DNA of 36,174 bases from Clostridia bacterium (GTDB taxonomy: Bacteria; Bacillota; Clostridia; Oscillospirales; Acutalibacteraceae): the NCBI GenBank assembly GCA_017440965.1, contig JAFSGH010000012.1:1-36174 (forward strand), written 5' to 3'. Shown one piece after another: positions 1-36,174 of this stretch. Position 1 is the stretch's first letter; each line of letters opens with the position of its first letter. Under the pieces are notes generated by a model that was given only the letters and a program-made list of their open reading frames with translations, was not told the DNA's origin and did not search any database. The position numbers were made by a program, and so were the translations under genes.

Positions 1-140
1 ATGCTTCCAATAGCGCAGGAGGGGAGAAAAACAGTCCGGTGGACTGTTTTTCGTTGGGAACCCTCGCCGGGGGTTCCCAAGTGCGAAGCACAAAATGATT
101 AAAGTGAGTAATATGATTCCCAAACTTTCCGTGAAGAGGG
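1..140 (+). repeat. Right end of modular hairpin repeat (copy 1, truncated by window start)
   Basis: Three hairpins follow one another: arms 27-37/41-51 (AAAAACAGTCC, loop GGT), arms 54-63/71-80 (TTGGGAACCC, 7-nt loop) and arms 81-84/88-91 (GTGC, loop GAA). They are followed at 93-140 by a segment that recurs almost unchanged at 21538-21583: a linker containing AAAGTGAGTAATATG, then the right arm ATTCCCAAACTTTCCGTGAAG (116-136) and GAGGG. The matching left arm is not here; it would lie upstream of the window. The terminal AGAGGG appears to serve as the ribosome site for the next gene. The repeat relationship is read directly from sequence; any mobility is inference. Confidence 0.75.
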
Positions 141-146
141 AAAAAA

Positions 147-422
147 ATGACAGAGAAGGTATTTATAAGAAAAATACCCTTACCGATAAATGTAAGGGCA
201 TTTACTCTTCCCGATGAAACGGGAAGCTACAATATTTACATCAATGATGCACTGTCTTATGAACAGCAGAAAAAGAGTCTGAAGCACGAGATAGCGCATA
301 TACTTAACGGTGATTTTCTGAAGGAGGACAGTGCCCTTGAAATAGAAGAAGCACTGAAAAAGCTTCTGAAGGAAGCGTTCTTCGGTGATACCGATACGGC
401 AGCGTCTTCTTCAGCCCTCTGA
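147..422 (+). CDS. Small ImmA/IrrE-like zinc metallopeptidase-domain protein, possibly truncated
   Basis: This 91-residue protein resembles the ImmA/IrrE (DUF955) group: a short beta-rich N-terminal half (residues 1-40) leads to a helix with the zinc motif HEIAH (about residues 47-51, in KSLKHEIAHILNGDF). ImmA/IrrE proteins usually cleave or inactivate helix-turn-helix repressors on mobile elements or stress regulons, but most are longer and carry a third zinc ligand downstream. Here the protein ends shortly after an acidic helix, and its last ~28 codons lie in a sequence that is duplicated just downstream, so the C-terminus may have been altered. No partner repressor is visible. The start ATG has AGAGGG six bases upstream, supplied by the preceding repeat. 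The domain call is fairly secure; activity is uncertain. Confidence 0.6.
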   Translation: MTEKVFIRKIPLPINVRAFTLPDETGSYNIYINDALSYEQQKKSLKHEIAHILNGDFLKEDSALEIEEALKKLLKEAFFGDTDTAASSSAL

Positions 423-527
423 TGCTGCAAAAAGAAGAGCTTTCCTGAAGGAGGACAGTGCCCTTGAAACAGAAGAAGCACTGAAAGCTTTTGAAGGAAG
501 CGTTCTTCGGTGATACCGATACGGCAG
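318..527 (+). repeat. Imperfect direct duplication of the 3' end of the ImmA-like gene
   Basis: Copy 1 (318-402, 85 nt) and copy 2 (445-527, 83 nt) both begin CTGAAGGAGGACAGTGCCC and both end in GATACCGATACGGCAG. The visible differences are AATAG against AACAG and a two-base deletion with one substitution in the middle of copy 2, which shifts its reading frame. Copy 1 is in frame in the gene; copy 2 lies after the stop codon and is non-coding. A 42-nt spacer separates them. This looks like a tandem duplication or a gene-tail remnant left by recombination. Confidence 0.8.
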
Positions 528-549
528 TATCACCGTAAGCCTTCTGATT

Positions 550-21474: not shown

Positions 21475-21508
21475 GAAGCCGATGCCGTCAGATGTCGGCT
21501 TCTTTTTT
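21475..21508 (+). terminator. Intrinsic terminator of the two-component operon
   Basis: GAAGCCGA (21475-21482) and TCGGCTTC (21495-21502) form an eight-base stem with a 12-nt loop, followed by six Ts. The hairpin repeat begins only a few bases later. Confidence 0.88.
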
Positions 21509-21512
21509 GGTG

Positions 21513-21583
21513 CTTCACGGAAAGCCGGGGAATGATAATGATCAAAGTGAGTAATATGATTCCCGGACTTTCCGTGAAGAGGG
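21513..21583. repeat. Hairpin repeat, copy 2 (complete short form)
   Basis: The left arm CTTCACGGAAAGCCGGGGAAT (about 21513-21533) pairs with the right arm ending CTTTCCGTGAAG (21559-21579), 19 of 21 positions matching; the 25-nt interior includes ATCAAAGTGAGTAATATG. The right arm and linker match 93-140 and the left arm matches 36042-36062. In this copy the two halves are joined directly, whereas in the terminal copies extra hairpins appear between them. It lies immediately after a terminator T-run plus GGTG; the last copy likewise follows a T-run plus GGT. Confidence 0.85.
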
Positions 21584-21612
21584 TCTTTTTTTTCGGGAAA
21601 GCATTACTTATG

Positions 21613-35674: not shown

Positions 35675-35944
35675 ATGAACAAGACTGATCTCGTAAATGC
35701 AGTTGCAGCAAAGGGCCTTTCCAAGAAGGATGCAGATGTTGCAGTTAAGGCTGTTCTTGACAGCATCACAGATGCACTTAAGGCAGGAGAAAAGGTACAG
35801 CTTATCGGTTTCGGTACATTTGAAGTTCGTGAAAGAGCAGAAAAGGAAGCTCGTAACCCCAGAACAGGCGAAACAATCAAGGTTGCAGCAACTAAGGTTC
35901 CCGCTTTCAAAGCAGGCCAGGCTCTCAAGGATGCTGTAAAATAA
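35675..35944 (+). CDS. hup: HU-family DNA-binding protein
   Basis: The 89-residue protein is a typical [22 protein letters not shown] at the N-terminus, the [21 protein letters not shown] arm region (about 46-66, including the conserved RNP motif that inserts the proline into the DNA minor groove) and the [13 protein letters not shown] ending. It bends and compacts DNA as a dimer. The ATG is preceded by AAGGAGGAAATT, the strongest ribosome site in this part of the window, as expected for an abundant protein. mazG-hup adjacency is common in Firmicutes. A strong terminator follows. Confidence 0.96.
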
Positions 35945-36000: not shown

Positions 36001-36037
36001 TTGCCTTCAGCAGAGATTCTGCTGAAGGCAATTTTTT
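36001..36037 (+). terminator. Strong intrinsic terminator of hup
   Basis: TTGCCTTCAGCAGA (36001-36014) and TCTGCTGAAGGCAA (36018-36031) form a perfect 14-base stem with a three-base loop and six Ts, one of the strongest terminators in the window. Confidence 0.95.
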
Positions 36038-36041
36038 GGTT

Positions 36042-36174
36042 CTTCACGGAAAGTTGGGGAATGATGTCGGCACGGGAGTGCCGGGGAAAAGTTTTGCTTG
36101 AGCTTTTTCAAAAGCTCACGGTGTCAAGAGGCAGAGCCTCTTGTGGCACTGCGCAGAGTGCGAAATCTCTCAAG
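36042..36174. repeat. Left end of modular hairpin repeat (copy 3, truncated by window end)
   Basis: The left arm CTTCACGGAAAGTTGGGGAAT (36042-36062) matches copy 2 and complements the right arm of copy 1. Instead of the short linker it is followed by four hairpins: 36068-36083 (CGGCAC/GTGCCG), 36100-36117 (GAGCTTTT/AAAAGCTC), 36125-36143 (CAAGAGGC/GCCTCTTG) and 36146-36161 (GCACT/AGTGC). No gene is visible in this stretch. The right arm would lie beyond the window. Confidence 0.8.

What the first reader, a model, noticed from the sequence alone, without database searches (positions are those of the whole stretch)
36042..36174. Repeat appears to be a container for variable arrays of small hairpins
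In the copy at 21513 the two arms are separated by a 25-nt linker. At the window end the left arm is followed by at least four hairpins, and at the window start three other hairpins precede the right half. The hairpins differ in sequence but share short flanks (for example GTGCGAA at 81-87 and again near 36158-36164). This suggests a modular element that gains or loses hairpin cassettes between conserved ends, possibly an array of structured RNA or protein-binding sites.
Basis: partly seen in the sequence, partly recalled or inferred. Interest (0 to 1): 0.7.

Follow-up and report, generated by a model that had tools for sequence, protein, structure and literature searches.

The report
Mobile hairpin array in gut Clostridia
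The repeat is a small jumping DNA element that carries a fixed row of hairpins in this genome, and the same core of hairpins, with freely changing but almost perfectly paired stems, turns up in many copies in other gut Clostridia, with no settled function.

Summary
The window is a whole contig (36,174 bp) that begins and ends inside two copies of one ~265-bp element. In this genome the element is fixed: 15 of 16 closed copies examined are 262-266 bp with one hairpin order (h1-h8); only the 67-bp copy at 21513 lacks the interior. It is a miniature transposon: arms GGTTCTTCACGGAAAGTTGGGG, 8-bp A/T-rich target duplications, and the same or a similar arm at five ISL3-type transposase 3' ends in four relatives. 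Copies mostly sit at gene 3' ends. The core h2-h3-h4 recurs in 20 of 26 genus, 38 of 245 order and 20 of 391 class genomes, while other hairpins come and go. No Rfam family reached its threshold. Stems vary yet stay Watson-Crick: 1386 of 1420 free pairs in a sample chosen mainly by loops and linkers, 14 G-U (tRNA control: 58 of 839). One genome has 13 different fully paired h4 stems around a constant loop. Copies in the window's genome, however, decay without structural constraint. Mobility is well supported; the array's function (transcript-end structure, DNA hairpin, or arm-to-arm copying) is inferred.

The parts
1..136 (+). 3' part of a full element copy (h5 remnant, h6, h7, h8, right arm); the 5' part is cut off by the contig end
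   Evidence: aligns to columns 131-266 of the full element
27..51 (+). hairpin h6 (AAAAACAGTCC-ggt-GGACTGTTTTT); optional module in relatives
54..80 (+). hairpin h7 (TTGGGAACCC...GGGTTCCCAA)
81..91 (+). hairpin h8 (GTGCGAAGCAC)
116..136 (-). right terminal arm (B end), followed by the 4-nt terminus AGGG at 137-140
21501..21508 (+). left target duplication TCTTTTTT; the terminus GGTG follows at 21509-21512
   Evidence: 8 of 8 identical
21513..21579 (+). 67-bp short form: the two arms with a 25-nt linker, lacking the whole hairpin array
21584..21591 (+). right target duplication TCTTTTTT after the terminus AGGG (21580-21583)
36038..36174 (+). 5' part of a full element copy: terminus GGTT, left arm, h1-h4; the rest is cut off by the contig end
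36042..36062 (+). left terminal arm (A end)
36068..36083 (+). hairpin h1 (CGGCAC-ggga-GTGCCG), optional module in relatives
36083..36166 (+). core h2-h3-h4, match to covariance model R1 (87.7 bits)

Best explanation
The element is a non-autonomous miniature transposon of the ISL3 type. Its arms are, by inference, moved in trans by an ISL3-family transposase; it inserts into short A/T-rich targets with an 8-bp duplication (shown by the flanks) and is found mostly in gaps at gene 3' ends (shown). Its interior is an ordered hairpin array that is wider than this transposon: the core h2-h3-h4 exists across the order and in some genomes elsewhere in the class, with neighbouring hairpins gained, lost or exchanged (shown). 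My best inference for the array is a transcript-end structure: it lies between or just after genes and, if transcribed, would form a ladder of stable hairpins that shields 3' ends and hinders read-through in either direction, so insertions are tolerated and source copies persist. Stems may change freely because only perfect pairing matters. That functional step is inferred, not shown.
For: One length, 262-266 bp, in 15 of 16 closed copies examined (12 of them also). Target duplication: 8-mers outside the 4-nt termini agree at 95 of 128 positions against 63.8 (sd 6.9) in shuffled pairings, 0 of 10,000 shuffles as high; 5 of 16 copies identical over 8 bp; the signal peaks at exactly this offset. 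ISL3: a PF01610 C-terminal fragment abuts GGTTCATCACGGAAAGTTGGGG in G019; genes similar to that fragment end at the arm in G415 (two places, GGTTCTTCACGGAAAGTTGGGG), G348 and, less similar, G352. Placement here: upstream gene points at the core in 19 of 25 cases, downstream gene in 18 of 20, so 37 of 45 sides are gene 3' ends (p 1.5e-5). Array: 24 stem pairs, 99.3% of 430 cells paired, 15 pairs with double changes, 0 of 500 shuffles; 20 of 26 genus, 38 of 245 order, 20 of 391 class genomes, own genome included each time. In Butyricicoccus pullicaecorum 25 of 36 cores follow a co-directional gene, 18 of them 7-28 nt after its stop codon.
Against: No PF01610 match in the window's own genome, which is 86% complete, and 25 of 26 genus genomes have none, so the mobilising enzyme is inferred from relatives; the transposase genes seen at the arm are all short fragments, and 11 of 16 loci examined have no such arm. 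Sense orientation is not strict: 17 of 57 cores in three other genomes follow an oppositely directed gene; the wider sample of relatives shows 38 of 56 upstream (p 0.01) but no downstream bias (24 of 57) at the strictest setting, and no significant bias at the loosest (5 of its 115 'other' entries repeat a place). Gene calls are plain ORF calls; earlier settings gave other figures. No terminator-like site was found in the array. In one search one of five measures (further pair types) did not exceed its shuffles (117 of 500 as high). The stems of this genome's own copies diverge as much as the loops (0.028 against 0.023) with 93 mismatched, 41 A-C, 23 G-U and 4 compensated cells, many from a few shared variants, so no function at individual sites is visible here. 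No expression data.
Confidence: 0.7

Rival explanations
1. Modular container: the element itself gains and loses hairpin cassettes between its arms in this genome.
For: One of 16 closed copies lacks the whole interior. In relatives h6 is present or absent within one genome, and other modules vary by lineage. In Butyricicoccus 9 of 14 h4 stems occur with more than one h3 stem.
Against: 15 of 16 closed copies examined here have one length and order; no intermediate cassette number was seen among them. Odd copies L022 and L024 are truncations.
Confidence: 0.3
2. Hairpin stems are kept perfect by copying one arm onto the other (template switching at palindromes) or by exchange of whole hairpins between copies, not by selection for a function; the array is passive cargo.
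For: Both-sided changes almost without G-U: of 1420 free pairs in 142 distinct cores of six genomes, 1386 Watson-Crick, 14 G-U, 3 A-C, 17 other. In Butyricicoccus 13 distinct inner h4 stems, 74 of 76 distinct cores fully paired there, 1 G-U of 380 cells against 58 of 839 in a tRNA control (p 7e-9). h4 stems assort with several h3 stems. Own-genome copies show no structural selection.
Against: Loops, linkers and the order h2-h3-h4 stay constant over a whole order, which arm copying alone does not explain. In the window's genome one-sided changes are mostly left uncorrected (4 compensated cells).
Confidence: 0.35
3. A strand-specific structured RNA (small RNA or 3' UTR element) with a sequence-recognised loop.
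For: Constant loops, strong covariation, location just after stop codons in Butyricicoccus. In h3, G-U outnumber A-C: 20 to 3 in the model-picked set and 10 to 0 in Butyricicoccus, where most share one or two stem variants.
Against: Near absence of G-U in h2 and h4; both orientations common; no Rfam match at gathering in the window and only sub-threshold ones at relaxed settings; own copies drift with A-C 41 against G-U 23.
Confidence: 0.25
4. A REPIN-like system moved by a single-strand-specific (Y1) transposase that recognises the hairpins.
For: High copy number, intergenic palindromes, inverted pairs of cores in Butyricicoccus.
Against: In the window's genome the element has 8-bp target duplications and ISL3-type arms. 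A Y1 transposase was not searched for.
Confidence: 0.1

Closest known systems
Bacterial MITEs of insertion sequences (here ISL3 family)
   Same: Short, non-coding, terminal inverted arms shared with an IS, 8-bp target duplication, many copies, strong secondary structure.
   Different: The interior is a hairpin array that also exists without these arms in other genera; no derivation from an IS interior was seen.
Pneumococcal BOX elements (boxA-(boxB)n-boxC; PMC3049150, passages only)
   Same: Composite repeat with conserved ends and a variable number of internal modules, MITE features, folded if transcribed; in Streptococcus suis different end modules surround the same internal module.
   Different: Here the internal modules are unlike hairpins in a fixed order, not tandem copies of one module; stems covary while loops stay constant. 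No sequence comparison with BOX was made.
REPINs and REP elements (PMC3116915, PMC3733652: search listings and abstract starts only)
   Same: High-copy intergenic palindromes, sometimes in inverted pairs.
   Different: Much longer, several unlike hairpins in order, target duplications; association with a RAYT protein not tested.
Palindromic candidate structured RNAs of human microbiomes (PMC8040213, passages only)
   Same: Palindromic, intergenic, terminator- or REP-like candidates in gut genomes.
   Different: The palindromic examples whose host is named in the passages seen are from Bacteroidetes; whether this array is among its 3161 candidates was not checked, as supplementary tables were out of reach.

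Membership tests
ISL3-family MITE | Terminal inverted arms shared with an ISL3 insertion sequence | tested here: met
   The same or a similar arm at the 3' end of ISL3-type transposase fragments in 4 genomes, 5 places: G019, G348, G415 twice, G352; 25 of 28 positions equal for G019. Only the G019 gene was itself a PF01610 match; the others match its protein (E 1.8e-30 to 1.2e-6). 11 of 16 loci examined and 29 of 29 had no such arm.
ISL3-family MITE | 8-bp target site duplication | tested here: met
   95 of 128 positions, 0 of 10,000 shuffles; 5 of 16 exact. That 8 bp is usual for ISL3 is recalled.
ISL3-family MITE | No transposase gene inside | tested here: met
   about 265 bp, hairpins only
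ISL3-family MITE | Autonomous partner in the same genome | tested here: not met
   0 PF01610 matches in the draft genome, 86% complete; not required for membership
BOX-like modular repeat | Conserved ends enclosing a variable number of internal modules | tested here: inconclusive
   Fixed in this genome, variable between and within relatives
BOX-like modular repeat | Sequence homology to boxA, boxB or boxC | not tested
   no comparison run
Rfam RNA family | Match above a curated gathering score | tested here: not met
   0 in the window; only sub-threshold hits in L011 and 15 related loci
Intrinsic terminator | G+C-rich stem followed by a T run | tested here: not met
   0 sites in one full copy and its flanks; h6 has its T run inside the stem
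REPIN | RAYT (Y1) transposase in the genome | not tested
   PF01797 was not searched
REPIN | No target duplication, mobilised as single-stranded DNA (recalled feature) | tested here: not met
   8-bp duplications in the window's genome

The most novel reading that the evidence does not exclude
A family of shape-only hairpin arrays spread over an order and parts of its class: an ordered core (h2-h3-h4) in which loops and linkers are constant while stems are replaced as whole, perfectly Watson-Crick blocks, mixed and matched between copies of one genome, and which transposons pick up as cargo. It would be a genetic element selected (or mutationally held) for duplex shape alone, read at the DNA level or from both strands.
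Probability: 0.35. Interest if true: 0.8.

Novelty: new variant of a known kind. Interest (0 to 1): 0.55.

Why it matters
MITEs and palindromic repeats are known, but an ordered hairpin array whose stems are swapped as perfectly paired blocks, with few G-U pairs, in many copies over an order of common gut bacteria, reached no Rfam 15 threshold in the sequences tested and was not met in the nine literature searches made here. It gives a natural test of an open question: are palindromes in bacterial repeats kept by function or by a copying mechanism? It also explains why assemblies of such genomes break where they do (31 of 94 arms lie in the first 500 bases of a contig) and warns that covariation alone does not prove an RNA.

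Tried and rejected
Assembly artefact: rejected, since closed copies lie inside contigs with target duplications. Known RNA family: rejected for Rfam 15. Phage or plasmid origin: no blastn match of one full copy at E 1e-5 in 50,697 phage or 72,556 plasmid records; the core pattern hit 1 IMG/VR contig, not followed up. Shared flank GTGCGAA as a cassette mark: rejected as incidental. Insertion always just behind a terminator: 9 of 59 arms have a terminator-like hairpin right outside, some weak, so not a rule. Strict sense 3'-UTR rule: rejected. First orientation counts with open-ended ORFs and with ORFs overlapping the arrays were noisy and replaced; one search used 57 of the 63 matches (6 at contig edges or with weak scores left out). 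ISL3 genes elsewhere in the order: 15 of 245 genomes have PF01610; R1 found no array in the 14 of 29 such loci searched, and none of the 29 had the arm (the loose matches printed there are not it). Papers: 9 searches. For five sequence strings of the array only one paper, on human glaucoma genes, held one by chance. Seen: passages of PMC8040213, PMC12306157 and PMC3049150; the rest only as listings and abstract starts. One search scored at most 150 candidates per genome, at most 18 and 11, so copy numbers there are lower bounds. The 18 sequences were picked partly by requiring a paired h4, so h4 pairing there is biased, as are the model-picked hits. The pattern is fairer, but it fixes some stem bases (GGC/GCC in h3, CG/CG in h4), lists only part of the matches (100 of 143 for G145; none of the G125 rows) and duplicates within a genome were dropped. 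In some searches I left out a few distinct G145 rows by mistake (45 of 47 and 73 of 76 used); one search redoes G145 with all 100 listed rows, and the totals given here use for G145 and for the other five genomes.

Full report
What is there. The window is the whole of contig C86 (36,174 bases) of a draft genome of 2.28 Mb in 86 contigs. Its two ends lie inside copies of one repeat. The left arm with hairpins h1-h4 is at 36042-36174, hairpins h6-h8 with the right arm are at 27-136, and a 67-bp form with both arms and a 25-nt linker is at 21513-21579. The arm pattern, with up to 3 mismatches, occurs 47 times on each strand of the genome and its reversed control 0 times. Thirty-one of those 94 arms lie in the first 500 bases of a contig, so the assembly breaks at this repeat. 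Of 16 closed copies examined, 15 are 262-266 bp; only the window's short copy differs. Of 26 own arrays with enough sequence, 16 show all modules h1, core, h5-h8; the other 10 are cut by a contig end, truncated (L024) or have mutated hairpins in place.

The element as a transposon. Just outside the arms lie four bases. Of 58 arms listed, GGTT stands at the h1 end in 21 and CCCT at the other end in 19, with the reverse assignment in 5 and 4 and variants in the rest, as if the interior had flipped between the termini in some copies. Beyond them, 8-mers on the two sides agree at 95 of 128 positions; shuffled pairings average 63.8 and never reached 95 in 10,000 tries, and the signal peaks at exactly this offset. 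Five of 16 copies have identical 8-mers, among them the short copy (TCTTTTTT). Arms like GGTTCTTCACGGAAAGTTGGGG also stand at the 3' end of ISL3-type transposase genes: a PF01610 fragment in G019, and genes similar to it in G348, G415 (two places) and, with a less similar arm, G352. The window's own genome has no PF01610 match. That ISL3 elements make 8-bp duplications and begin with GG is recalled. I conclude that the repeat is an ISL3-type MITE; the inference rests on arms and target duplications, not on observed movement.

Where it sits. With ORFs of at least 130 aa and flanks of at least 900 bases, the gene upstream of the core points towards it in 19 of 25 cases and the downstream gene points towards it in 18 of 20 (other settings 19 of 25-26 and 17-19 of 19-21); together 37 of 45 sides are gene 3' ends. 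At the window end the neighbour is an HU-type gene (35675-35944; PF00216) followed by a terminator-like hairpin (36003-36029), and the element begins right behind it. A terminator-like hairpin directly outside was found for 9 of 59 arms, some weak.

The array beyond this genome. DNA search with a full copy found matches in 26 of 59 genomes (own included), often only to the interior. A covariance model of h2-h3-h4 (R1) matched 20 of 26 genus genomes (53 matches in the own genome), 38 of 245 genomes of the order in 26 of 127 genera, and 20 of 391 genomes of the class, 10 of these outside the order and several of them weak. The 80 record titles listed (of 119 stretches; the scan stopped at its limit) for a core pattern in the named genome collection read Ruminococcus, Oscillospiraceae, Butyricicoccus, Anaerotruncus, Oscillibacter, uncultured Clostridia and the like. 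Hairpins after the core differ: h5-h6-h7-h8, h5-h7-h8, or another hairpin in Butyricicoccus; h6 is present in some copies and missing in others of G014, G019 and G021 (the module search uses fixed strings and misses mutated hairpins). In G014 and G021 two arrays face each other inside other ends, and in Butyricicoccus pullicaecorum inverted core pairs lie between genes with further hairpins in the middle. So cassettes do come and go, but on the scale of species and genera.

Stems. In 18 chosen sequences, 99.3% of 430 stem cells pair, 15 of 24 pairs show changes on both sides, and no shuffle of 500 reached the covariation score, while the number of further pair types did not exceed its shuffles (117 of 500 as high). 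The choice of sequences favoured paired h4, so I repeated the count with a pattern that fixes loops, linkers and a few stem bases: reversed control 0 in all 10 genomes, 7 of 10 genomes hit. In 142 distinct cores of six genomes, 1386 of 1420 free pairs are Watson-Crick, 14 G-U, 3 A-C and 17 other (for five genomes, for G145). In Butyricicoccus (76 distinct cores from 100 listed of 143 matches) 13 different fully paired inner h4 stems surround the constant loop, 74 of 76 cores have it fully paired, and one cell of 380 is G-U; 40 distinct tRNAs found in the fetched loci have 58 G-U of 839 pairs (Fisher p 7e-9). Nine of 14 h4 stems occur with more than one h3 stem. In the window's genome, by contrast, 44 aligned pieces show 93 mismatched, 41 A-C, 23 G-U and 4 compensated cells, many of them from a few variants shared by several copies, and stems diverge as much as loops: these copies look like a recent burst that decays freely.

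What it does. The mobile part is settled well enough. For the array, three readings stay open: a transcript-end structure (location at gene 3' ends; in Butyricicoccus 18 of 36 cores start 7-28 nt after a co-directional stop codon), a DNA or two-strand hairpin selected for shape, and passive palindromes kept perfect by arm copying or whole-hairpin exchange. The rarity of G-U speaks against a plain strand-specific RNA; the constant loops and order speak against a purely mutational cause. I favour the transcript-end role carried as transposon cargo, with the shape-only property as the most surprising feature.

Known or new. MITEs and modular BOX elements are the nearest known kinds (PMC3049150, passages). 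No Rfam 15 family reached its threshold. None of nine literature searches showed a description of this array; most subscription journals and all supplementary tables were out of reach. I rate it a new variant of a known kind.

Noticed in passing
window 147-548: An ORF with an IrrE N-terminal-like (Peptidase_M78) match (147-422) is followed by a partial duplication of its own 3' half (314-423 against 441-548, 88-96% alike).
   Followed up: no
L021 (G000:C80:9100-11900), around 495-550, reading on the minus strand: The right end of the MITE is joined to a different array of small hairpins with TATTTCAC spacers, a second hairpin-repeat type in the same genome.
   Followed up: no
own-genome arms listed: The 4-nt termini GGTT and CCCT are swapped relative to the interior in a minority of copies (5 and 4 of 58 arms), as if the interior inverts between the arms.
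   Followed up: partly
L148-L155 (G127): After the core, these G127 copies share a further stretch (GAGAAGAGCGAGTGGGAACGAGTGATA and variants) that I did not notice in the other genomes printed.
   Followed up: no
L059 and L084 (G013): The h7 region seems split by an inserted block of other hairpins.
   Followed up: no
L354 (IMG/VR contig, 12,604 bp): The only viral-collection contig with the core pattern holds three cores; it may be host DNA.
   Followed up: no
h4 outermost pair in G145 and G167: The outermost h4 pair is A opposite G (either order) in a recurrent minority (13 of 76 distinct G145 cores; 2 of 16 G167 cores), the commonest tolerated mismatch.
   Followed up: no
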